DNA of 64,000 nucleotides from Fidelibacterota bacterium (GTDB taxonomy: Bacteria > Fidelibacterota > Marinisomatia > Marinisomatales > TCS55), in the NCBI GenBank assembly GCA_004124385.1, contig SCKN01000003.1:1-64000 (forward strand), written 5' to 3'. The notes below the pieces were generated by a model that saw only the letters and a program-made list of their open reading frames with translations, did no database searches and had not been told where the DNA came from. The translations under genes were made by a program, and so were the position numbers. This document shows positions 21,073 to 36,311 of this stretch, piece after piece. Numbering within the stretch: position 1 is the stretch's first letter; each line of letters begins with the position of its first letter.

Positions 21073-21080
21073 AATCTAAA

Positions 21081-21096
21081 CCGACTGGTCGGTCGA
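21081..21096. promoter_or_regulatory. Putative TetR operator of the fad operon
   Basis: CGAC (21082-21085) and GTCG (21092-21095) are exact inverted half-sites around TGGTCG. An overlapping CCGAC/GTCGG repeat is also present. The site sits 9 bp ahead of the tetR start and shares its layout with the operator before the second tetR gene (23406-23423). Confidence 0.65.
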
Positions 21097-21232
21097 GTTT
21101 ACGATTGTTATATCCATACTCCAAATAATTTTCTGGAAATTGTTGCAAAGTATAAGTATAGTCTGTTAATTTGTTATTGAGACTAAATCTCATTAACAAT
21201 AACAAACTAATAAAAAGAGGAAAATATGAAAT

Positions 21233-22312
21233 ATGAGTAAAATAATAATTGGAGTTTTATGTATCGCTGGACTTATAGCGCAGGATGATTTTTTTGTGCC
21301 GGGAAGTTCCATCGGTGGATATGGAGAACTCCATTATAATAAAAGTCAATCCGGTGAAAATGCTGCAACAACTAAGTTGGATTTCCACCGTTTCATCATT
21401 TACTATGGCTTTTCATTTTCAGAGGAATGGTCATTTAAATCAGAAGTAGAATTAGAACATAATTTTGTAAAAGATGGTGAAGGTGAGTTGGAGTTGGAAC
21501 AAGCATTTGTAAACTATCACACAAACAAGTTTGGATTTCAAGCAGGTGTCATTTTGCTATCGGTTGGTCTTTTAAATGAATTTCATGAACCGCCCTTATT
21601 CTTGAGTGTAGAACGTCCGGATTACAGTAAATATGTTATTCCAACAACCTGGTTTGGGAATGGTGCTGCTGTTTACGGATCATTTGGTGACGTTAACTGG
21701 CGTTTTGCTCTTCTTGAAGATATGGATGGTGACGCAATCGGAAAAGGAATTCGCAGCAGCCGTGGTAAAGGGTATAAAACAACTGCTTATAATATGGTAA
21801 AAAATATGAGTATGAATTACACCGGTATCTCTGGTTTGCGCGTAGGCGGTTCTTATACGATGCATAATGCTCCTACATCTGCTTATTTCACCACGGATTC
21901 TGAAGGAAATTCAATTGTTAATGATGCTGATTCAGCTAGTGTCGGTTTTTCATTGATGGAAATTAATGTAAAATATAATGCAAATAATTTGTATGCTGTA
22001 TTAGAATATGGTTCAATTGCATATGAAAACAATCCTTTGGGTTATGAAACAAGTGGTGGTTATTATGTGGATTTGGGTTATAACGTTGGTTCAATCGTTG
22101 GATTAAAGGGGACATTAATGCCTTGGGTTCGTATGTCTGACTACAACCGTGGAAACGATGATGAGGATCAATATTATACCATAAATAGATTTGGTATAAC
22201 GTATTGGCCAATTTCAAATGTTGCATTTAAATTTGATTATGGAACCCATAAAAAAGAATCTGATGAAGATGCAAAAACTCAGATAAATATTGGTGTTGGC
22301 TATAATTTCTAA
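21233..22312 (+). CDS. Outer-membrane porin-like beta-barrel
   Basis: 359 residues. A short signal (MSKIIIGVLCIAGLIAQ) precedes the mature segment DDFFVPGSSIGGYGELHYN. The barrel has alternating strands, and the chain ends GVGYNF with a terminal Phe, as outer-membrane proteins do. The sequence LDFHRFIIYYGFSFSEEWSFKSEVELEH resembles the phosphate-selective-porin-like or DUF3570-like barrels found with metal or heme uptake systems. An AGAGGAAAA Shine-Dalgarno region precedes the start. Two exported/membrane redox-type genes follow immediately. The solute is unknown. Confidence 0.75.
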   Translation: MSKIIIGVLCIAGLIAQDDFFVPGSSIGGYGELHYNKSQSGENAATTKLDFHRFIIYYGFSFSEEWSFKSEVELEHNFVKDGEGELELEQAFVNYHTNKFGFQAGVILLSVGLLNEFHEPPLFLSVERPDYSKYVIPTTWFGNGAAVYGSFGDVNWRFALLEDMDGDAIGKGIRSSRGKGYKTTAYNMVKNMSMNYTGISGLRVGGSYTMHNAPTSAYFTTDSEGNSIVNDADSASVGFSLMEINVKYNANNLYAVLEYGSIAYENNPLGYETSGGYYVDLGYNVGSIVGLKGTLMPWVRMSDYNRGNDDEDQYYTINRFGITYWPISNVAFKFDYGTHKKESDEDAKTQINIGVGYNF

Positions 22313-22325
22313 TCTCCGAAGTCAG

Positions 22326-22874
22326 TTGTTAAAAAGAAGGCTGTGGTTTCGCACTGCAGTCTTCGCTTCTCTGATGATTTCGTCAATAATGGGCGGAATT
22401 AAGGAAGATGCAGAAAATATGATTATAAGTGAGTTCGGCAATGAATCAACACTTTCATTTACTAAATATATCCTTCCAAGTACAATTAAATCTCCCATCG
22501 AACGAAAGGTTAAACAGCATTTTAATTTGCCATTTGTATATATATGGGTCGTTTCACAAAATGATACTGTCTCCGGGTTTGCAATCTTGGATAATGTAAA
22601 AGGTAAATCGATGCCCATTACATTTATTGGAATGTATAATAACAAAGGGGCTATTATTAAAACGGCTGTAGTAAAGTATCGTGAGGCCATTGGCGGGGAA
22701 GTGGGTCAACCATCTTGGCAAAAACAATTTATTGGTAAATCAAAATCATCGGCTTTTACGGATGTGGATGCTATAAGCGGTGCAACCATTTCTGTGCACG
22801 CGGTAACTAAAGGAATTCATAAATTAACGATATTATTGGACATCATTAAAAGCGACTTAACAACAAATGAATGA
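22326..22874 (+). CDS. Exported FMN-binding-domain protein
   Basis: No ATG precedes the domain except one at 22374 that would remove the export signal. I chose TTG at 22326, just after the porin stop, because it gives a basic N-terminus and a hydrophobic signal (LLKRRLWFRTAVF then ASLMISSIMGG). The start remains uncertain; a TTG at 22290 is also open. The C-terminal half is an FMN_bind domain, with the flavinylation-type motif DAISGAT near residue 150 whose Thr is the expected covalent FMN site (ApbE-dependent in this family). It probably carries electrons in the periplasm. It overlaps the following membrane gene by 8 bp. Confidence 0.75.
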   Translation: MLKRRLWFRTAVFASLMISSIMGGIKEDAENMIISEFGNESTLSFTKYILPSTIKSPIERKVKQHFNLPFVYIWVVSQNDTVSGFAILDNVKGKSMPITFIGMYNNKGAIIKTAVVKYREAIGGEVGQPSWQKQFIGKSKSSAFTDVDAISGATISVHAVTKGIHKLTILLDIIKSDLTTNE

Positions 22875-23355
22875 ATTTAAACTTAATCAATTAGATGTTG
22901 GACTGCGCTGGTTTCTGGCAATATTTCTATTTGTTTTAGCCATGGGCGTAACTGTAGGATTGGTGTATGTAAGTACAACAACGGACATTAATCCCCAAGG
23001 GACCGTAGAGCATTATGTAGGTTCAGAAGTAGACGACTTCGATATTCCGGAAAAGTATCCCAAATCAGTGGATGCAATGCTCTTGACGACCCATACACAT
23101 ATTATTGCTTTTGCGCTCATCTTTGTTTTGCTTGGCGGGTTGTTTTATTATAATTCCATTATAAGCGCAACGTGGAAAAATGTGTTGATGATTGAACCAT
23201 TACTGGCTACACTGGTTACCTTTGGGTCAATTTGGGGCATACGTTTTATTCATCCTGCATTCAGCTATTTAACCATTCTTTCCGGCTCTCTTATGTATCT
23301 GTCGTTTTATACTATGACAACCATCCTGCTTTACGATCTGATCTTTAAGAAATAA
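22867..23355 (+). CDS. Small four-helix membrane protein, partner of FMN-binding protein
   Basis: 162 residues with about four membrane helices (roughly 15-35, 75-98, 105-125, 130-155) and a loop on the outer side after helix 1. Histidines sit at helix ends (TTHTHIIAFALI near 76 and RFIHPAFSYL near 126). They could ligate haem b, but no cytochrome motif is diagnostic. The gene overlaps the FMN-binding protein gene, so the two almost certainly work together, perhaps passing electrons from the membrane to the flavin. I do not recognise the family; this role is inference. Confidence 0.7.
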   Translation: MNEFKLNQLDVGLRWFLAIFLFVLAMGVTVGLVYVSTTTDINPQGTVEHYVGSEVDDFDIPEKYPKSVDAMLLTTHTHIIAFALIFVLLGGLFYYNSIISATWKNVLMIEPLLATLVTFGSIWGIRFIHPAFSYLTILSGSLMYLSFYTMTTILLYDLIFKK

Positions 23356-23405: not shown

Positions 23406-23423
23406 TTCGACTAGTCAGTCGAA
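23406..23423. promoter_or_regulatory. Putative TetR operator ahead of the second tetR gene
   Basis: A perfect inverted repeat, TTCGACT (23406-23412) and AGTCGAA (23417-23423) around a 4-base centre, 22 bp before the tetR start. It is very similar to the operator before the fad-operon tetR. Confidence 0.72.
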
Positions 23424-28027: not shown

Positions 28028-29131
28028 ATGAAAAAGCATAACTCACCCCAATATTATCACGATTACTTGAAATTAGACAGAATTCTGGATAGTCAGCATC
28101 TTTTGAGTAAAGAACTAGGCGAGGAAGCTCACGATGAAATGTTGTTTATTATTATTCATCAAGTATATGAGCTTTGGTTCAAACAGATTCTTCATGAACT
28201 TGATTCAGTTATTAAGGCCTTTGATCGGGATACAGTTCATGAATCTCATATTGGAATTGCCATTAGCCGGTTGGATAGAATTATCGAGATTCAGAAAATT
28301 TTGATCAATCAAATTCATGTATTGGAAACTATGACGCCCATGGATTTTTTGGATTTTCGTGATTTACTCATTCCCGCTTCAGGTTTTCAAAGCGTACAAT
28401 TCCGTGTTTTGGAGAATAAGCTTGGCTTAAAGGAAGACAGGCGTTTTGTATATGGAAAAGGAGGTTATAAATCCTACGTTACCGAAGAACATAAAAGCCA
28501 TATTGAAGAAGCGGAGCAGTCACCTTCTCTTTTTAATTTATTGGAAAAATGGTTGGAGCGTACACCTTTTTTAGAATTTGAAAATTTCAATTTTTGGGAG
28601 CAATATCGTTCAGCTGTGGATGATATGTTGGCTAGTGACCGTCATCATATTGAGGTAAATGAGCAATTGTCTGAAGCTGAAAAGCAGAATCAACTGAAGG
28701 AATATACTGGAACAGAGAAAAAATTTGATGCTCTCTTCGATAATGAAAAACATAATGAACTAATTGAAAAAAAGGAACACAGGCTATCATACAAAGCCAC
28801 TCAGGCAGCATTGTTAATTTTATTATATAGAGATCAACCTATTCTACACAATCCTTATAAATTATTAAATAAACTCGTAGATGTGGATGAATTACTGACA
28901 ACGTGGCGTTACCGCCATGCTTTGATGGTTATGCGCATGATCGGCCGCAAGATCGGAACCGGTGGCTCTACGGGGTCTTCCTATTTGAAGGAAACGGCAG
29001 AACGACATCGGGTATTTGAAGATTTAGCGAATTTAACTACATTTCTCATTCCCCGTTCTGCACTTCCAAATCTCCCTGATCATATTGTACGTAATCTTGG
29101 TTTTTATTATGACACTGGAGAAGATAAATGA
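28028..29131 (+). CDS. kynA: Tryptophan 2,3-dioxygenase
   Basis: 367 residues. The haem enzyme oxidises L-tryptophan to N-formylkynurenine. The start YYHDYLKLDRILDSQ, the active-site helix HDEMLFIIIHQVYELWFKQILHEL near residue 40, and the C-terminal RHALMVMRMIGRKIGTGGSTGSSYL block (about 298-320, with the haem-ligand His region) are diagnostic. It is longer than typical proteobacterial TDO (about 280-300) and closer to the eukaryote-sized form, owing to an acidic helical insert at about 200-260. It heads the kynurenine operon and overlaps the SDR gene by 4 bp. Confidence 0.96.
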   Translation: MKKHNSPQYYHDYLKLDRILDSQHLLSKELGEEAHDEMLFIIIHQVYELWFKQILHELDSVIKAFDRDTVHESHIGIAISRLDRIIEIQKILINQIHVLETMTPMDFLDFRDLLIPASGFQSVQFRVLENKLGLKEDRRFVYGKGGYKSYVTEEHKSHIEEAEQSPSLFNLLEKWLERTPFLEFENFNFWEQYRSAVDDMLASDRHHIEVNEQLSEAEKQNQLKEYTGTEKKFDALFDNEKHNELIEKKEHRLSYKATQAALLILLYRDQPILHNPYKLLNKLVDVDELLTTWRYRHALMVMRMIGRKIGTGGSTGSSYLKETAERHRVFEDLANLTTFLIPRSALPNLPDHIVRNLGFYYDTGEDK

Positions 29132-29904
29132 ATTTAAATCTGGAAGGAAAACGAGCTCTTTTGTGTGGTAGTACGGATGGAATCGGCAAAGCGTGTGCAT
29201 ATCTTATGGCAGAACGAGGAGCGGGAATAATATTGGCTGCCCGTAATGAAACAAAGATTAAATCAGTGTTGAGAAATCTGGCGGGTGATGGTCACAGTTA
29301 TATATGTGCAGATTTTGACAATCCGGATGATTTGAAACAAAAAACAAACGATTATCTAGCGGAAATGGGTCCCGTTCATATATTGATGAATAATACTGGT
29401 GGACCCCAAGGTGGTCCGCTCATTGAAGCCAGCGCTGAAGAATTTGAAATTGCTTTTCGCCGACATGTTATTGCAAATCAATATTTAGCCCAAGCTGTCG
29501 TTCCTGGAATGAAGAAATTGGGCTACGGACGGATCATTAATATTATTTCTACTTCTGTACGACAGGTTATTCCGGGATTGGGTGTTTCCAACACAATTCG
29601 TGGTGCCGTTGCGCAATGGGCAAAAACACTGGCGTTAGAACTGGGCCCGGATAGTATCACTGTCAATAATGTTCTTCCTGGTTATACCAACACAGAACGA
29701 TTAAAAGATTTGTTGGGAAAATGGGCTGAAAATACTGGTATCAGCTATGAAGAAATGGTAGAAGCAACTTCCCAGAAAACATCTTTACGACGGATTGGTG
29801 AGCCGGAAGAAATCGCATCAGCTGTCGCATTTTTAGCATCGGCTGCAGCCGGTTATATTAGTGGAACAGATTTTCCTATAGATGGTGGTCGTTTCGGAGT
29901 TTGA
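29128..29904 (+). CDS. SDR-fold protein with degenerate active site, in kynurenine operon
   Basis: 258 residues with the SDR Rossmann motif (CGSTDGIGKA near residue 14) and NNTGGPQGG near 90. The usual catalytic Tyr-x3-Lys is replaced: where YSASK is expected the sequence reads SNTIR (LGVSNTIRGAVAQWAKTLA near 165-183). Such Ser/Arg variants occur in a BKR_3-like SDR group. It overlaps kynA and the aldehyde dehydrogenase by 4 bp each, so it is tied to tryptophan breakdown. Its reaction is unknown, and it is not an obvious formamidase replacement. Confidence 0.85.
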   Translation: MNLNLEGKRALLCGSTDGIGKACAYLMAERGAGIILAARNETKIKSVLRNLAGDGHSYICADFDNPDDLKQKTNDYLAEMGPVHILMNNTGGPQGGPLIEASAEEFEIAFRRHVIANQYLAQAVVPGMKKLGYGRIINIISTSVRQVIPGLGVSNTIRGAVAQWAKTLALELGPDSITVNNVLPGYTNTERLKDLLGKWAENTGISYEEMVEATSQKTSLRRIGEPEEIASAVAFLASAAAGYISGTDFPIDGGRFGV

Positions 29905-31349
29905 TGGAGACTCTGGCCAATTATATCAATGGTGAATTTATCCCACCGAAATCGGGTAACTACATGGACGTATATGAACCTGCCACAGGTCAGGTTTACG
30001 CCAAAACTCCAGATTCTAACAGCGCTGATATCGACGATGCGGTTCAATCTGCAACTGCAGCTTTTGAAACATGGTCAAATATATCAAGGAATGAACGTTC
30101 AAAGATATTACACGAAATAGCAAATGGAATTGAAAGTCGGATGGATGAATTTGCTGAATACGAATCCCGTGATACAGGGAAACCACTTGAACTGGCCAAG
30201 TCTGTAGATATTCCACGGGCAGTTACCAACTTTCGATTTTTTGCGGATCATGCACTTGAATTCGAAACAGAATCAATCCTAGACGGAAATGGATCCATTA
30301 ATAAAGTAGTTCGAAAACCATTAGGTGTTGTTGGGTGTATTTCGCCATGGAATTTGCCATTATATTTATTCAGCTGGAAGATTGCTCCGGCATTAGCTTC
30401 TGGTAATTGTGTTGTGGGCAAGCCCTCTGAATTAACTCCCTATACTGCATTCAAATTAGGCGAGATATGCCAGGAAGCCGGTCTTCCAAAAGGTGTATTG
30501 AACATTGTGCATGGTTCTGGACAAAATACAGGGTCAGCTATCACTTCACATCCGGAAATCAAAGCAATATCATTCACAGGTGGGACGAAAACAGGCGAAA
30601 CCATCAGCCGTACAGCTGCACCGCAATTCAAAAAACTGTCATTGGAATTAGGCGGAAAGAATCCCAATATCATTTTTGCGGATTGTGATTTCGACACCAT
30701 GTTAACATCAACAATTAAATCATCTTTTTCCAATCAAGGTGAAATCTGTTTGTGCGGTTCCAGAATATTGGTGGAAGATGCGATATATGAAAAATTTAGA
30801 GATGCGTTTGTTGAAAAAACGAATGCATTGATTGTGGGCGATCCCAATGATGATACTTCAAAACTTGGAGCACTAATTTCCAAAGAGCATTTGGAAAAGG
30901 TGTTAACCTACGTTGCCTTGGCAAAAGAAGAAGGTGGAACCGTTTTAGCGGGCGGAAAGAAAACTTCAATCAATGACCGCTGTGAAAATGGATATTTTAT
31001 GGAACCGACCATTATTGATGGATTATCAGCTGACTGCCGTACGAACCAGGAAGAAATATTTGGTCCTGTGGTTACGCTCATCCCATTTTCAACAGAAGCA
31101 GAAGCAGTCGCCATCGCCAATTCAACAGATTATGGCTTGGCAGCCACAATTTGGAGTGGCAATCCAGATAAAGCAAATCGTGTTGCTGACCAAATTGATG
31201 CGGGAATTGTGTGGATCAACTGCTGGATGGTTCGGGATCTGCGGACACCTTTTGGCGGTATGAAAAGCTCCGGAGTCGGCAGGGAAGGCGGCGATGAAGC
31301 ATTGCGATTTTTTACTGAACCAAAAAATATTTGTATGAGAGAAGTATGA
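29901..31349 (+). CDS. 2-aminomuconate 6-semialdehyde dehydrogenase
   Basis: 482 residues of the aldehyde dehydrogenase superfamily. GCISPWNLPLYLFSWKIAPALA (oxyanion Asn) lies near 147, FTGGTKTG near 223, the general-base Glu in LELGGKNPN near 250 and the nucleophile Cys in NQGEICLCGSRI near 283. It resembles the 2-hydroxymuconic/2-aminomuconic semialdehyde group. Position between ACMSD-pathway genes supports NAD-dependent oxidation of 2-aminomuconate semialdehyde to 2-aminomuconate. It overlaps its neighbours by 4 bp on both sides. Confidence 0.92.
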   Translation: MMETLANYINGEFIPPKSGNYMDVYEPATGQVYAKTPDSNSADIDDAVQSATAAFETWSNISRNERSKILHEIANGIESRMDEFAEYESRDTGKPLELAKSVDIPRAVTNFRFFADHALEFETESILDGNGSINKVVRKPLGVVGCISPWNLPLYLFSWKIAPALASGNCVVGKPSELTPYTAFKLGEICQEAGLPKGVLNIVHGSGQNTGSAITSHPEIKAISFTGGTKTGETISRTAAPQFKKLSLELGGKNPNIIFADCDFDTMLTSTIKSSFSNQGEICLCGSRILVEDAIYEKFRDAFVEKTNALIVGDPNDDTSKLGALISKEHLEKVLTYVALAKEEGGTVLAGGKKTSINDRCENGYFMEPTIIDGLSADCRTNQEEIFGPVVTLIPFSTEAEAVAIANSTDYGLAATIWSGNPDKANRVADQIDAGIVWINCWMVRDLRTPFGGMKSSGVGREGGDEALRFFTEPKNICMREV

Positions 31350-31705
31350 AACCTAGATATGAAAAACATATATTTGTCTGCCTAAAAGAGCGGTCGGCAA
31401 ACCATCCAAGAGGATGCTGTTTGGAAAAAGGCAGTATGGATATTAGAAACAAATTTGTGCAACTTATCAATCAACATGGTCTTAAAGGGAAAGTCAGGGC
31501 CAATAAAAGCGGCTGCCTGGATGTATGTGAAATGGGCGTAAATCTTGTGATATATCCAGATAATATTTGGTATACTGGTGTAACGGAAAAAGATGTTGAC
31601 GAAATTTTTGAAACATCTATTTTGCATGATAAAATTGTGGAAAGATTGGCTGCGACCGAAACAACCTGGAAAACGTGCGAAAAAATAAGGAAGGGTGAAC
31701 TATGA
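31346..31705 (+). CDS. Thioredoxin-like [2Fe-2S] ferredoxin-domain protein
   Basis: 119 residues from ATG 31346, which overlaps the dehydrogenase stop by 4 bp; an upstream alternative start adds only five residues. The pattern FVCLKERSANHPRGCC then NKSGCLDVCEMG gives the C-x11-C and C-x3-C arrangement of thioredoxin-fold [2Fe-2S] ferredoxins (TRX_Fd, NuoE-like). It is a small cytoplasmic electron carrier or sensor. Its place inside the tryptophan operon is notable because none of the known pathway steps needs a ferredoxin. Confidence 0.85.
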   Translation: MKPRYEKHIFVCLKERSANHPRGCCLEKGSMDIRNKFVQLINQHGLKGKVRANKSGCLDVCEMGVNLVIYPDNIWYTGVTEKDVDEIFETSILHDKIVERLAATETTWKTCEKIRKGEL

Positions 31706-32124
31706 GTGAATCCTATACATCAGATAAAGCACCCGAGCCTGTTGGATTGTATCCCCATGCCAAACGCGTAGGAAACATGCTATTCCTCTCCGGTGTGGGT
31801 CCGCGCAAGCCAAATTCAAAAGACATTCCCGGAGTTACATTAAATAGTAATGGTGAAATTGCTGCGTATGATATAGTAGCTCAATGCCAATCCGTATTTG
31901 AAAATGTCCGCATCATTTTGGAAGAAGCTGGAAGCAGCTGGGATCAACTGGTGGATGTGACCGTGTTCCTCACCGACATGAAGAACGATTTTGAAACGTA
32001 TAACCGTATTTATGCTGAATATTTCAAGGATAACCAGCCCTGCCGGACGACAGTTGAAGTTTCGTCCCTACCCACACCCATTTCCATTGAACTGAAATGT
32101 ATTGCGACAATTATCAAGGAGTAA
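31702..32124 (+). CDS. RidA-family protein, likely 2-aminomuconate deaminase
   Basis: 140 residues of the YjgF/RidA trimer family. LFLSGVGPR near 32 and the active-site Arg in PCRTTVEVSSLP near 115 are visible. Characterised 2-aminomuconate deaminases belong to this family and are encoded beside aminomuconate semialdehyde dehydrogenase, as here. It would release ammonia from 2-aminomuconate to give 4-oxalocrotonate. A general enamine/imine deaminase role is the alternative. It overlaps the ferredoxin gene by 4 bp. Confidence 0.88.
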   Translation: MSESYTSDKAPEPVGLYPHAKRVGNMLFLSGVGPRKPNSKDIPGVTLNSNGEIAAYDIVAQCQSVFENVRIILEEAGSSWDQLVDVTVFLTDMKNDFETYNRIYAEYFKDNQPCRTTVEVSSLPTPISIELKCIATIIKE

Positions 32125-32127
32125 AGT

Positions 32128-32640
32128 ATGCCCATAACTTCACCGATTAATTTCAAAAATTGGATCGAAGAACATCGACATCTCTTAAAACCACCTGTAG
32201 GTAATCGTGTTGTTTATGATGAAGGTGATTTTATGATTATGGTGGTGGGTGGACCTAATTCCCGGAAGGATTATCATGTAGATACGGTGGAGGAATTCTT
32301 TTATCAACTGGAAGGGGACATGCTGTTAAAAATAATGGAAGATGGTAAAAGAGTAAATATACAAATCAAAGAAGGTGAAATTTTTTTACTTCCAAAAAAT
32401 GTTCCCCATTCGCCCCAACGCTTTGAAAACACCGTGGGTCTTGTAGTAGAATACCAGCGGGAAGAAGGTGCCCTGGATGCGTTTCAATGGTATTGTGATG
32501 AATGTGATAAAATGATTCATGAGGTCACTTTGGATTTGGAAAATATCGTCACCCAATTACCACCTTTATTTGAAGCATACTGGAATAGTTTGGACGCTCG
32601 AACCTGTGAATCGTGCGGTGCGGTGCAGGAAAAACCTTAA
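32128..32640 (+). CDS. 3-hydroxyanthranilate 3,4-dioxygenase
   Basis: 170 residues, a cupin. The Fe ligands sit in YHVDTVEEFFYQLEGD near residue 50 (His, Glu) and NVPHSPQR near 92 (His). The prokaryotic C-terminal rubredoxin-like site is present as YCDECDK near 117 and CESCGAV near 160. It opens the ring of 3-hydroxyanthranilate to 2-amino-3-carboxymuconate semialdehyde. Start ATG follows an AAGGAG site 8 bases upstream. Three bases separate it from the RidA gene. Confidence 0.96.
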   Translation: MPITSPINFKNWIEEHRHLLKPPVGNRVVYDEGDFMIMVVGGPNSRKDYHVDTVEEFFYQLEGDMLLKIMEDGKRVNIQIKEGEIFLLPKNVPHSPQRFENTVGLVVEYQREEGALDAFQWYCDECDKMIHEVTLDLENIVTQLPPLFEAYWNSLDARTCESCGAVQEKP

Positions 32641-32641
32641 T

Positions 32642-32714
32642 AAAGTGTAAAGGTGCTTAAGTGCTCATGAGTTAATGGCTTGAACACTTGAATACGATAA
32701 CACAAAAACACTTT
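32642..32714. repeat. Intergenic imperfect hairpin
   Basis: The outer arms AAAGTGT (32642-32648) and ACACTTT (32708-32714) are exact inverted copies. The inner arms CTTAAGTGCTCA (32656-32667) and the stretch at 32681-32692 pair 9 of 12. The element fills the only sizeable gap in the kynurenine operon and could modulate expression of the downstream four genes. Confidence 0.6.
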
Positions 32715-32722
32715 TTTAAATA

Positions 32723-33733
32723 ATGAAGATTGATATACACACCCATATTTTGCCTAAAGAATGGCCGGACTTAAAAGAAAAATACGGTTACGGCGGCTGG
32801 ATCCATTTGGACCATCATCAAACCGGTTGTACCAGGATGATGAAAGATGATCATTTCTTTCGGGAAGTGGAAGCGAACCTGTGGGATCCCGGTGTGCGCA
32901 TGGATGAATGCAGCAGCCAAAACGTGGATGTACAGGTGCTCTCCACTGTGCCGGTCATGTTCAGTTACTGGGCGAAAGCAGATGATGCCCTGGATATTTC
33001 CAAATTACTCAATGATCATATTGCAGCCGTTGCAGCAGAATTTCCCAAACGATTTATTGGACTGGGAACGATTCCCCTGCAAGATTCGGATATGGCGATT
33101 AGTGAATTGGAACGTTGTATAAAAGAACTGGGTTTGGTTGGAGTACAAATCGGTTCTAATGTAAATGGTGTGAACCTGGATGATGATTCGTTATATACAG
33201 TGTTCGAAGCAGCGGCAGAATTGGGTGCGGTGATTTTTGTTCATCCTTGGGAAATGATGGGCGAAAATGATATGAAAAAATATTGGTTGCCTTGGTTGGT
33301 GGGCATGCCTGCAGAAACATCACGAGCCATTTGTTCTATGATTTTTGGGGGAATTTTTGAACGTTTACCGAATCTTCGAGTTGCCTTTGCGCATGGAGGT
33401 GGTTCCTTCCCTGCAACGATTGGAAGAGTACAGCACGGATTTGATGTGCGACCGGATTTATGTGCAGTTGACAGTACAATAAACCCCAAAGATTATCTGG
33501 GGAAATTCTGGGTGGATTCACTCGTACACGATCCAGATGCCCTGGATTTTCTCATGAAAAAAGTGGGAGAAGACAAAATTGCTTTGGGCACCGATTATCC
33601 CTTTCCTTTAGGAGAATTACAACCGGGAAAATTGATTGAAGATTCCTATTATTCTGATGAAATAAAAAACAAGTTCCTTTTCCAAAATGCCCTTAATTGG
33701 CTAGGACTTAATCAGGAAAATTTTATCTTATGA
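32723..33733 (+). CDS. 2-amino-3-carboxymuconate-6-semialdehyde decarboxylase (ACMSD)
   Basis: 336 residues of the amidohydrolase_2 family. Zinc ligands are DIHTHILP at residues 3-10, VHPWEM near 174, AHGGGSFP near 224 and the Asp in LGTDYPFPLGE near 291. Together with the HAO and dehydrogenase genes it diverts the unstable ring-opened product away from quinolinate (NAD synthesis) into the 2-aminomuconate branch, meaning tryptophan is used as carbon and nitrogen source. It overlaps kynU by 4 bp. Confidence 0.95.
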   Translation: MKIDIHTHILPKEWPDLKEKYGYGGWIHLDHHQTGCTRMMKDDHFFREVEANLWDPGVRMDECSSQNVDVQVLSTVPVMFSYWAKADDALDISKLLNDHIAAVAAEFPKRFIGLGTIPLQDSDMAISELERCIKELGLVGVQIGSNVNGVNLDDDSLYTVFEAAAELGAVIFVHPWEMMGENDMKKYWLPWLVGMPAETSRAICSMIFGGIFERLPNLRVAFAHGGGSFPATIGRVQHGFDVRPDLCAVDSTINPKDYLGKFWVDSLVHDPDALDFLMKKVGEDKIALGTDYPFPLGELQPGKLIEDSYYSDEIKNKFLFQNALNWLGLNQENFIL

Positions 33734-34977
33734 ACTACAAAAATACGATTGTTTTTGCCCAGGGAATGGATCTGCGGGATCCGCTGAAAGATTACCGGAG
33801 TCAGTTTCATTTTCCCCAGAAAAGTGGAAAGGATGTATTATACTTTTGTGGGAATTCATTGGGATTAATGCCCAAAACGACTGCCGCCGCAGTCAATAAA
33901 GAATTAAATGTTTGGGAAAAAGAGGGCGTTTTGGGCCAACATTCACGATGGGAAGCTTATCATGAGCATCTCACAGATTCTACAGCTCGACTTGTCGGTG
34001 CAAATCCATCGGAAGTGGTCGTTATGAATGCTCTAACAGTAAATCTCCATCTGCTATTGGTTTCATTCTACCAACCCACACCCCAGCGAAATAAAATCGT
34101 CATTGAGCAGGGAGCTTTTCCTTCCGATCAATATGCAGTGGAATCTCAAATCAGATTTCATGGTTTTAATCCAAAAGAAGCACTTATAGAATTAATACCT
34201 CGAGAAGGTGAAAAATATCTCCGGACTGATGATATTTTAAATACGTTAAAAGAAAACAGTAATTCCATTGCTACGATTTTAATCGGGGGTGTTAATTATT
34301 ATTCAGGCCAAGCATTTGACATGGAAAAAATTACGAAAGTGGGACATGAAATTGGTGCTTATGTTGGGTTTGATCTGGCTCATGGCGCCGGCAACTTGCT
34401 CTTAAATTTGCATGATTGGAATGTGGATTTTGCCGCCTGGTGCAGTTATAAATATATCTGTGCAGGTCCCGGTAGTCCCGGAGGAGTTTTTATTCATGAG
34501 CGTCATGGCAATTGGGAGGGGCCAAGGTTTGCGGGATGGTGGGGTCATGATAAAGGAACACGATTTAACATGGGTCCGGATTTTGTTCCCATAATAGGAG
34601 CAGAAGGCTGGCAGATAAGTAATTCTCCTGTTTTATCCATGGCGTGCTTGCGAGAATCCATGTCTATTTTTGATGAAGCCGGGATGAAAGAGATAAGAAC
34701 GAAAAGTGAATTACTTACAGGATATCTTGAATATTTGGTTAAAACTATCAGTGATAATGTTGAAATCATAACTCCTTTCGTTCCGAGTGAGCGTGGTAAT
34801 CAGTTGTCGCTGGTCATGAAGGAAAATGGTAAAGTTGTGTTCAACGAACTAGGAGAAAAGGGAATCGTATGCGACTGGCGTGAACCGGATGTGATACGCA
34901 TTGCTCCATCGCCATTATACAATTCATATGCTGACATTTATTTCTTTTTTGAAATTCTGAAATCATTGGTAGTATAA
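33730..34977 (+). CDS. kynU: Kynureninase
   Basis: 415 residues, a fold-type I PLP enzyme. CGNSLGLMP near 40, the phosphate-binding NALTVNLHLL near 97, the Asp in GFDLAHGAGNLLL near 214 and the PLP Lys in WCSYKYICAGPG near 237 match kynureninase exactly. It hydrolyses (3-hydroxy)kynurenine to (3-hydroxy)anthranilate and alanine. It overlaps the ACMSD gene by 4 bp and precedes the monooxygenase by 5 bp. Confidence 0.97.
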   Translation: MNYKNTIVFAQGMDLRDPLKDYRSQFHFPQKSGKDVLYFCGNSLGLMPKTTAAAVNKELNVWEKEGVLGQHSRWEAYHEHLTDSTARLVGANPSEVVVMNALTVNLHLLLVSFYQPTPQRNKIVIEQGAFPSDQYAVESQIRFHGFNPKEALIELIPREGEKYLRTDDILNTLKENSNSIATILIGGVNYYSGQAFDMEKITKVGHEIGAYVGFDLAHGAGNLLLNLHDWNVDFAAWCSYKYICAGPGSPGGVFIHERHGNWEGPRFAGWWGHDKGTRFNMGPDFVPIIGAEGWQISNSPVLSMACLRESMSIFDEAGMKEIRTKSELLTGYLEYLVKTISDNVEIITPFVPSERGNQLSLVMKENGKVVFNELGEKGIVCDWREPDVIRIAPSPLYNSYADIYFFFEILKSLVV

Positions 34978-34982
34978 TCTCC

Positions 34983-36311
34983 ATGATAAAAAAAATTACG
35001 CTGATCGGCGCCGGACTTACCGGTCCACTGCTCGCAACCTATCTTGCTAATCGAGGCTATGAAGTAGATATTTATGAACGGCGCCCAGATATGCGGAAGG
35101 AATCTATCAGCGCCGGACGTTCCATCAACTTAGCCATGTCCATTCGCGGAATCCATGCTTTGAAAGAGGTCGGACTATTTGAAAAAATCGATCCGTTGAC
35201 CATTTCCATGAAAGGACGTATGATTCATGAACTTGACGGATCGACACATTTACAACCCTATGGTCAAAAACCTGAAGAAGTTATTCATTCAGTATCAAGG
35301 GCAAAGCTGAATATGGAATTAATGACGTTGGCAGAAGACACTGGAAAAGTGAACATTCACTTTAACCAAATCTGTACAGGGATGGATCTGGATGAAAAGA
35401 CTTTGTCTATATTAGATAAAAATTCAGAAAGTAAAAAAATAATACCTTTTGAGCTGGTTATGGGTGTGGATGGGTCCGCATCGGAAGTACGAGATGCTAT
35501 GATTTCAAAAGGGAATTTTGATTATGAGTTCAAACCTTTAGGCCATGGGTATAAAGAATTAACCATACCGCCGGGAGAAAACGGCGAATTTCAGATGGAG
35601 CCAAATGCACTCCACATCTGGCCCAGGGGACAATTCATGCTTATCGCATTGCCGAACTTGGATCGATCATTCACCTGCACATTATTTTTTCCCATGGAAG
35701 GTTCCACGAGCTTCGCAACTGTAAATTCTGCGGATGATATTTTACAGCTGTTTAACGAACATTTTTCTGATGCAATCCCTTTAATCTCAAACGTAGTCAA
35801 TGATTACCAATCCAACCCAACGGGACGCTTGGGTTCGGTGTATTGTGACCCGTGGCATGTAGAAGATAAAGCTGTATTGTTAGGTGACGCTGCTCATGCT
35901 GTTGTACCCTTTTTTGGACAAGGAATGAATGCGTCATTCCAAGATTGTACTGTCCTTAACCAAATAATGGGCGTCCATAATAATAATTGGAATGCAATTT
36001 TATCCGAATTTTCAAATCAGCACGTTCGGAATGGTTATGCTATTGCAGATATGGCAGTAGAAAATTATCTTGAAATGCGGGATTATGTAACAGATCCTTA
36101 TTATATAAAACGTCGTGAACTGGAATTAAAAATGGAGCGTATATTTCCTGATGAATTCCTGCCCCGTTATTCTATGGTTTCTTTTCACCGGATTCCCTAT
36201 GCGAAAGTGTATGCAAAGGGAGAATACCAAAATAAGTTAATGGATAGAATTTTAGATAAATATGAACCTGATGACGTAGATGAATCATTGGTAAAGAGAT
36301 TTATGGAATGA
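34983..36311 (+). CDS. kmo: Kynurenine 3-monooxygenase
   Basis: 442 residues. FAD-binding GxGxxG (LIGAGLTGPLLATYLANRGYE, split over residues 6-26), the RSINLAMSIRGIHAL substrate-loop motif near 45, and the second FAD motif LLGDAAHAVVPFFGQGMN near 300 are all clear. The C-terminal part has the membrane-associated extension usual for KMO. It hydroxylates L-kynurenine with NADPH and O2, so this branch needs oxygen. It overlaps the acyltransferase gene by 4 bp. Confidence 0.96.
   Translation: MIKKITLIGAGLTGPLLATYLANRGYEVDIYERRPDMRKESISAGRSINLAMSIRGIHALKEVGLFEKIDPLTISMKGRMIHELDGSTHLQPYGQKPEEVIHSVSRAKLNMELMTLAEDTGKVNIHFNQICTGMDLDEKTLSILDKNSESKKIIPFELVMGVDGSASEVRDAMISKGNFDYEFKPLGHGYKELTIPPGENGEFQMEPNALHIWPRGQFMLIALPNLDRSFTCTLFFPMEGSTSFATVNSADDILQLFNEHFSDAIPLISNVVNDYQSNPTGRLGSVYCDPWHVEDKAVLLGDAAHAVVPFFGQGMNASFQDCTVLNQIMGVHNNNWNAILSEFSNQHVRNGYAIADMAVENYLEMRDYVTDPYYIKRRELELKMERIFPDEFLPRYSMVSFHRIPYAKVYAKGEYQNKLMDRILDKYEPDDVDESLVKRFME

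What the first reader, a model, noticed from the sequence alone, without database searches (positions are those of the whole stretch)
21233..23355. Porin, flavinylated protein and four-helix membrane protein: a possible envelope electron-transfer module
An FMN_bind protein with an intact DAISGAT attachment motif overlaps the gene of an unrecognised small membrane protein bearing membrane-border histidines, and both follow an outer-membrane porin. Covalently flavinylated proteins paired with new membrane partners are used for extracytosolic redox reactions. Here the haem/iron receptor operon next door suggests reductive release of iron or haem.
Basis: partly seen in the sequence, partly recalled or inferred. 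Interest (0 to 1): 0.6.

Follow-up and report, generated by a model that had tools for sequence, protein, structure and literature searches.

The report
Fur-box porin–flavoprotein–membrane iron module
Three adjacent genes (an outer-membrane porin, a periplasmic flavin protein and an unknown small membrane protein) stay together across three bacterial groups and carry the same iron-regulator DNA site as the ferrous-iron importer FeoAB, so they are probably an undescribed way of reducing ferric iron outside the cell membrane so that it can be imported.

Summary
Window 21233-23355 holds a porin-fold protein (P1), an FMN_bind protein with an intact ApbE site (P2), and an unrecognised 4-TM protein (P3) overlapping P2 by 8 bp. 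The trio is collinear in 74/74 loci that hold all three genes (Marinimicrobia, Ignavibacteria, Flavobacteriaceae). The SGAT site is kept in 74/74 P2 and an H-x-H motif at the outer end of TM2 in 79/79 P3.

The main new evidence is regulatory. A 7-1-7 Fur-like box, TGAGAnTnAnTCTCA, lies at 21178-21192. It has only two exact copies in the 2.09-Mb genome: this one, and one 13 bp upstream of a fur-feoA-feoB operon. In 27 further genomes 36 of 44 exact sites lie at the trio or feo promoter. Three Flavobacteriaceae show the same pairing with a variant box. In other lineages the trio sits next to FTR1-P19 or FeoB.

Best reading: a Fur-controlled envelope ferric reductase that feeds FeoB or FTR1. P3 is the presumed electron donor from the membrane, but that role is inference. 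Haem release is not supported: only one helix carries invariant His. P3 matches no Pfam family, solved structure or published flavinylation-linked membrane class.

The parts
21178..21192 (.). Fur-like 7-1-7 operator TGAGACTAAATCTCA, 40 bp upstream of the P1 start codon
   Evidence: One of only two exact TGAGANTNANTCTCA sites in the 2.09-Mb genome; the other precedes fur-feoA-feoB. 33/41 Marinimicrobia trio promoters hold it with <=1 mismatch, 0.05 expected.
21233..22312 (+). P1: porin (16-strand class, OmpF/OmpM1/OprP-like), with signal-peptide-like N-terminus
   Evidence: AF2 pLDDT 88.9; Foldseek E to 2.8e-14; a homologue in L149 passes the Porin_O_P cut-off.
22290..22874 (+). P2: FMN_bind protein, probably exported, with ApbE site DAISGATIS; real start probably 22290-22326, not ATG 22374
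   Evidence: PF04205 34.9 bits vs cut-off 22; [ST]GA[ST] in 74/74 homologues.
22776..22790 (+). Flavinylation core SGATI of P2; the Thr codon 22785-22787 is the expected FMN anchor
   Evidence: Sequence; invariant among homologues.
22867..23355 (+). P3: four-TM inner-membrane protein, family unknown; invariant H76-x-H78 at the outer end of TM2; W103 K104 in the TM2-TM3 turn and E110 P111 early in TM3
   Evidence: AF2 pLDDT 91; no Pfam, no PDB sequence match, no PDB fold match with E<0.5; invariants in the 42-member alignment.

Best explanation
The trio is a Fur-regulated reductive iron-uptake module. P1 lets small ferric complexes through the outer membrane. P2, with FMN attached covalently by ApbE, reduces Fe(III) to Fe(II) in the periplasm. 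P3 sits in the inner membrane and passes electrons, probably from quinol, to P2. The resulting Fe(II) is imported by FeoB (as in this genome) or by FTR1-P19 (in other lineages). Shown here: gene set, conservation, flavinylation motif, box shared with fur-feoAB, neighbourhood with Fe(II) importers. Inferred: Fur binding, the direction of electron flow, P3 as donor, quinol as source, and ferric iron rather than haem or another species as substrate.
For: (1) Box TGAGAnTnAnTCTCA: two exact sites in the whole genome, one before P1 and one 13 bp before fur (PF01475)-feoA-feoB. 27 other genomes: 44 exact sites, 23 at the trio, 13 at feo or fur-feoA, 8 elsewhere or unassigned; the reversed control pattern gave 1 site in all (with gene positions). 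(2) Trio promoters: 33/41 Marinimicrobia loci with <=1 mismatch against 0.05 expected. (3) Another phylum: in three Flavobacteriaceae the variant box TTAWAWTNANTCTAA has 3-7 sites per genome and hits both the trio promoter and feoA-feoB. (4) Adjacency: all 8 trio genomes that have FTR1 carry it within 3.5 kb, most with P19, in differing orientations; FeoB is divergent from the trio in 4 loci, with HmuY-TonB on the other side in 3 of them. (5) In family f1, 13/14 trio genomes have FeoB against 8/26 without the trio, Fisher p 2e-4, not corrected for kinship. (6) Ferritin near the trio in five Flavobacteriaceae loci, typed by Pfam in two. (7) ApbE in the genome and NusG_II-ApbE directly after the trio in Ignavibacteria-type loci.
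Against: No biochemical data. P3 shows no known cofactor motif, so its role as electron donor is by position and analogy only. The box resembles canonical Fur sites (TGATAATnATTATCA) but Fur binding was not tested. In family f1 the trio also lies divergent from a TetR and beta-oxidation operon, so a second regulatory link is possible. Three trio genomes (G116, G167, G190) showed no FeoB or FTR1 hit; all are incomplete assemblies. FTR1 presence across the phylum is not correlated with the trio.
Confidence: 0.6

Rival explanations
1. P3 is not an electron carrier but a metal-handling membrane protein: its outward H-x-H binds Fe(II) made by P2 and hands it to FeoB/FTR1 or moves it itself, while P2 takes electrons from another source such as the Na+-NQR.
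For: The only invariant ligand-type residues on the presumed outer face are H76 and H78, a usual metal-binding spacing; no bis-His haem pattern; the only other FMN_bind protein in the genome lies with apbE in the nqr neighbourhood.
Against: Nearly all trio genomes already own FeoB or FTR1 (43/47), so a second permease would be redundant; W103 K104 E110 P111 near the inner side are equally conserved, which hints at a site on that side too.
Confidence: 0.2
2. Reductive release of haem iron or haem, the first reader's idea: the trio serves the TonB/HmuY receptor operon.
For: TonB receptor genes lie beside the trio in several genomes, with true HmuY in L130 and L132; an exact box precedes HmuY in L191.
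Against: Most trio loci lack a TonB neighbour; the recurrent partners across lineages are Fe(II) importers and ferritin; the window's HmuY-like gene is not significant.
Confidence: 0.07
3. Outward electron transfer for respiration: P1 is a conduit or anchor for P2 so that electrons reach extracellular acceptors.
For: Porin and flavoprotein are never separated except by one extra gene in two loci; porin-plus-redox-protein conduits are known from MtrAB-type systems (own knowledge).
Against: The Fur-like box points to assimilation under iron starvation, not respiration; P1 has an ordinary porin fold, too narrow to hold an FMN_bind domain (the size argument is inference).
Confidence: 0.08
4. The trio belongs with the divergent TetR-controlled fatty-acid beta-oxidation operon.
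For: That arrangement is kept in nearly all family-f1 loci.
Against: It is rare outside that family, where the trio and its box persist.
Confidence: 0.03

Closest known systems
P19/FTR1-associated FMN_bind iron assimilation clusters (Meheust et al. 2021, PMC8238504)
   Same: FMN_bind protein linked with the Fe(II) importer pair FTR1-P19; proposed periplasmic iron reduction
   Different: Those clusters are mostly Gram-positive and described without a core transmembrane electron-transfer component; here a porin and P3 are constant, and in this genome the importer is FeoB, not FTR1
Flavinylation-associated membrane electron carriers: NapH-, MsrQ-, PepSY-, DsbD- and NQR/RNF-like, and DUF4405/FezC (PMC8238504, PMC11334425)
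   Same: A membrane protein encoded beside an ApbE-modified extracytosolic protein
   Different: P3 matches none by Pfam and lacks the cross-helix His sets of MsrQ, PepSY and DUF4405
PepSY ferric/siderophore reductases (VciB, FoxB)
   Same: Inner-membrane proteins implicated in assimilatory iron reduction, some Fur-repressed (PMC8238504)
   Different: PepSY family with haem ligands; no sequence or fold link to P3
OmpF/OprP-type porins
   Same: P1 fold
   Different: P1 is low in identity (12-16%) and has its own conserved motif HEPPLFLSVERPxYxKYIIPTTW

Membership tests
ApbE-flavinylated FMN_bind proteins | PF04205 domain above cut-off | tested here: met
   34.9 bits vs 22
ApbE-flavinylated FMN_bind proteins | [S/T]GA[S/T] attachment motif, conserved | tested here: met
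   74/74 homologues
ApbE-flavinylated FMN_bind proteins | ApbE in the same genome | tested here: met
   G000:C8, E 5.1e-88, next to nqrF
ApbE-flavinylated FMN_bind proteins | Export to the periplasm and covalent FMN | not testable with these tools
   Signal-peptide-like N-terminus seen by eye only; no biochemistry
NapH/MsrQ/PepSY/DsbD/NQR-RNF/DUF4405 membrane carriers | Pfam domain of one of these in the membrane protein | tested here: not met
   P3: none at E 1; among the 25 families listed for 42 homologues none is one of these
Bis-His membrane cytochromes | Conserved His on two helices | tested here: not met
   Only H76 and H78, same helix, are invariant
DUF2871 (PF11070) | Sequence relation to P3 | tested here: inconclusive
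   4/42 members hit, best E 0.13; hhalign score ranks among the top of 41 control membrane proteins but below an unrelated one, so not significant
P19/FTR1-FMN_bind clusters | FTR1 and P19 beside the FMN_bind gene | tested here: not met
   No FTR1 in this genome; met in several f16-family relatives
Fur regulon | Fur-type box in the promoter, shared with known iron genes | tested here: met
Fur regulon | Fur binding and iron-dependent repression | not testable with these tools
   Needs EMSA and transcription data
General porins (16-strand class) | Porin barrel fold | tested here: met
   AF2 pLDDT 88.9, Foldseek E to 2.8e-14

The most novel reading that the evidence does not exclude
P3 founds a new class of membrane electron carrier that reduces a covalently flavinylated periplasmic protein without the bis-His haem arrangement of known carriers, and with its porin forms a complete three-part ferric reductase serving both membranes, controlled by Fur together with FeoAB, in Marinimicrobia, Ignavibacteria and Flavobacteriaceae.
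Probability: 0.45. Interest if true: 0.75.

Novelty: new variant of a known kind. Interest (0 to 1): 0.63.

Why it matters
FeoB imports only Fe(II), yet in most Gram-negative bacteria it is not settled what reduces ferric iron for it (own knowledge). A conserved module with a Fur-like box that travels with FeoB and FTR1 is a concrete candidate, and it occurs in cultured marine flavobacteria, so it can be tested directly. It also adds an undescribed membrane protein family to the set of flavinylation partners.

Tried and rejected
Haem-copper oxidase helix II / DUF2871 origin of P3: an attractive motif (HTH) but not significant against 41 control membrane proteins. Foldseek of P3 against PDB: nothing with E<0.5. 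PDB sequence search with the P3 profile: nothing. PHROGs: nothing useful. Canonical Fur core TGATAATnATTATCA alone as a scoring model was too weak in AT-rich DNA (mean 10.2 observed, 9.6 expected), but it exposed the TGAGAnTnAnTCTCA consensus, which then proved highly specific. FTR1 presence or absence across the phylum does not track the trio; only its position does. Literature searches for the trio found nothing in the held library.

Full report
What is there. Window 21233-22312 encodes a porin (P1), 22290-22874 a probably exported FMN_bind protein (P2) and 22867-23355 a small four-helix membrane protein (P3); P2 and P3 overlap by 8 bp. P2 passes the Pfam FMN_bind cut-off and carries DAISGATIS. 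P1 is modelled as a porin barrel at pLDDT 88.9 and matches OmpM1, OmpF and OprP structures at E down to 2.8e-14; a distant homologue passes the Porin_O_P cut-off. P3 has no Pfam match, no PDB sequence match and no PDB fold match with E<0.5 although its model is good (pLDDT 91). The genome has one apbE, next to nqrF, and only two FMN_bind domains: P2 and one in the nqr neighbourhood, presumably NqrC.

Conservation. A profile of P3 found relatives in 47 of 245 genomes of the window's phylum and 48 loci in named genomes, from Candidatus Marinimicrobia, Melioribacteraceae and other Ignavibacteria, and Flavobacteriaceae. In all 74 loci holding the three genes they are collinear P1-P2-P3, P2 and P3 nearly always overlapping or abutting. 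A few of these loci are the same genome reached by two routes. The flavinylation motif is kept in 74/74 P2 and H-x-H in 79/79 P3. Across 42 diverse P3 sequences the invariant positions are G31 G52 L72 H76 H78 W103 K104 E110 P111 F119. By positive-inside reasoning the N-terminus is cytoplasmic, so H76/H78 lie at the outer end of TM2 after a long outer loop, and W103-K104 lie at the cytoplasmic side; this topology is inference.

Regulation: the deciding evidence. Upstream of P1 lies TGAGACTAAATCTCA (21178-21192). The consensus TGAGAnTnAnTCTCA, a 7-1-7 palindrome like Fur-family sites, has exactly two matches in the 2.09-Mb genome. The second is 13 bp upstream of a three-gene operon encoding a Fur-family regulator, FeoA and FeoB. 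Most of the five one-mismatch sites lie inside genes. In 27 further genomes there are 44 exact sites; by comparison with the positions of P3 and FeoB, and by reading the loci, 23 lie at the trio promoter, 13 at feo or fur-feoA, and 8 elsewhere, of which one precedes an HmuY gene. The reversed control pattern occurs once in all of them. Two genomes without a detected trio (G002, G009) keep the site at feo only. Counted over promoters, 33 of 41 Marinimicrobia loci have the box with at most one mismatch, against 0.05 expected; Ignavibacteria have the sister form TTAGATTnAnTCTAA. In three Flavobacteriaceae the variant TTAWAWTNANTCTAA occurs 3-7 times per genome. It marks the trio promoter (twice, 72-74 bp apart, in two of them) and the feoA-feoB promoter in all three. 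The variant form was read from trio promoters before it was searched, so its presence there is by construction, but its presence at feoAB is not. The same holds for the first form: it was read from trio promoters, and its recurrence at fur-feoAB is the independent result.

Neighbourhood. In family f16 all eight trio genomes with FTR1 have it within 3.5 kb of the trio, most with P19, on either side and in either orientation. Four loci have FeoB divergent from the trio, and in L130, L132 and L133 a TonB receptor and an HmuY gene lie on the other side (HmuY typed by Pfam in L130 and L132). Ferritin lies nearby in five flavobacterial loci, and a haem-binding-domain protein precedes the trio in many of them. 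In three Ignavibacteria-type loci a NusG_II protein and ApbE follow the trio directly. In the window's own family the trio is divergent from a TetR and beta-oxidation operon and is found almost only in FeoB-positive genomes (13/14 against 8/26, p 2e-4, kinship not corrected).

Mechanism. The simplest reading is reductive iron uptake: porin entry, reduction by covalent FMN, import of Fe(II) by FeoB or FTR1-P19. Iron acquisition as the purpose I hold at about 0.9; the full scheme with P3 as electron donor at about 0.6. P3 cannot be a standard bis-His b-type cytochrome as a monomer, since both invariant His are on one helix. It could bind haem as a dimer, bind quinone, or bind iron.

Relation to the known. 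Meheust et al. [quoted passage not shown] Huang et al. (PMC11334425) added DUF4405 and FezC. P3 belongs to none of these by the tests made here. The terms porin, FeoB, Marinimicrobia, Ignavibacteri and Flavobacteri do not occur in the main text of the first paper. I found no paper describing the trio in the held library, which is not complete. The system is therefore filed as a new variant of flavinylation-based assimilatory iron reduction, with a membrane component of unknown family.

Noticed in passing
window 21080-21093 and 23406-23423: Two further palindromes, ACCGACTGGTCGGT beside the divergent TetR gene and TTCGACTAGTCAGTCGAA before the second TetR gene; both look like TetR-family operators.
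   Followed up: no
window 28028-36311: Apparent complete tryptophan-kynurenine degradation cluster: tryptophan dioxygenase, aldehyde dehydrogenase, RidA-type deaminase, hydroxyanthranilate dioxygenase, ACMSD-like, kynureninase and kynurenine monooxygenase (read by eye).
   Followed up: no
L149:3752-4291 and L151:3501-4112: A gene of about 180-200 residues without Pfam match (tested in L149) is inserted between P1 and P2 in two of the most distant trio loci of the phylum.
   Followed up: partly
L042:8480-10094, L043:2310-4033, L058:599-2092: NusG_II-domain protein and ApbE directly downstream of the trio in Ignavibacteria-type genomes; the NusG_II protein may be a further part.
   Followed up: partly
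L111:1480-1932 and relatives (alignment A3): A DUF2871-like four-helix family with AHTHVLLMGG motif, in L111 directly after a gene that reads like a cytochrome c nitrite reductase; helix II resembles CcoN.
   Followed up: partly
L188:1501, L191:845: Exact box also before a MerC-like gene (L188, read by eye) and before HmuY (L191), extending the putative iron regulon.
   Followed up: partly
L140:2606-3166, L141:5735-7370, L135:4990-5568: Other divalent-metal transporters (MntP, cation efflux, a GDT1-like fragment) lie near the trio in family f30.
   Followed up: partly
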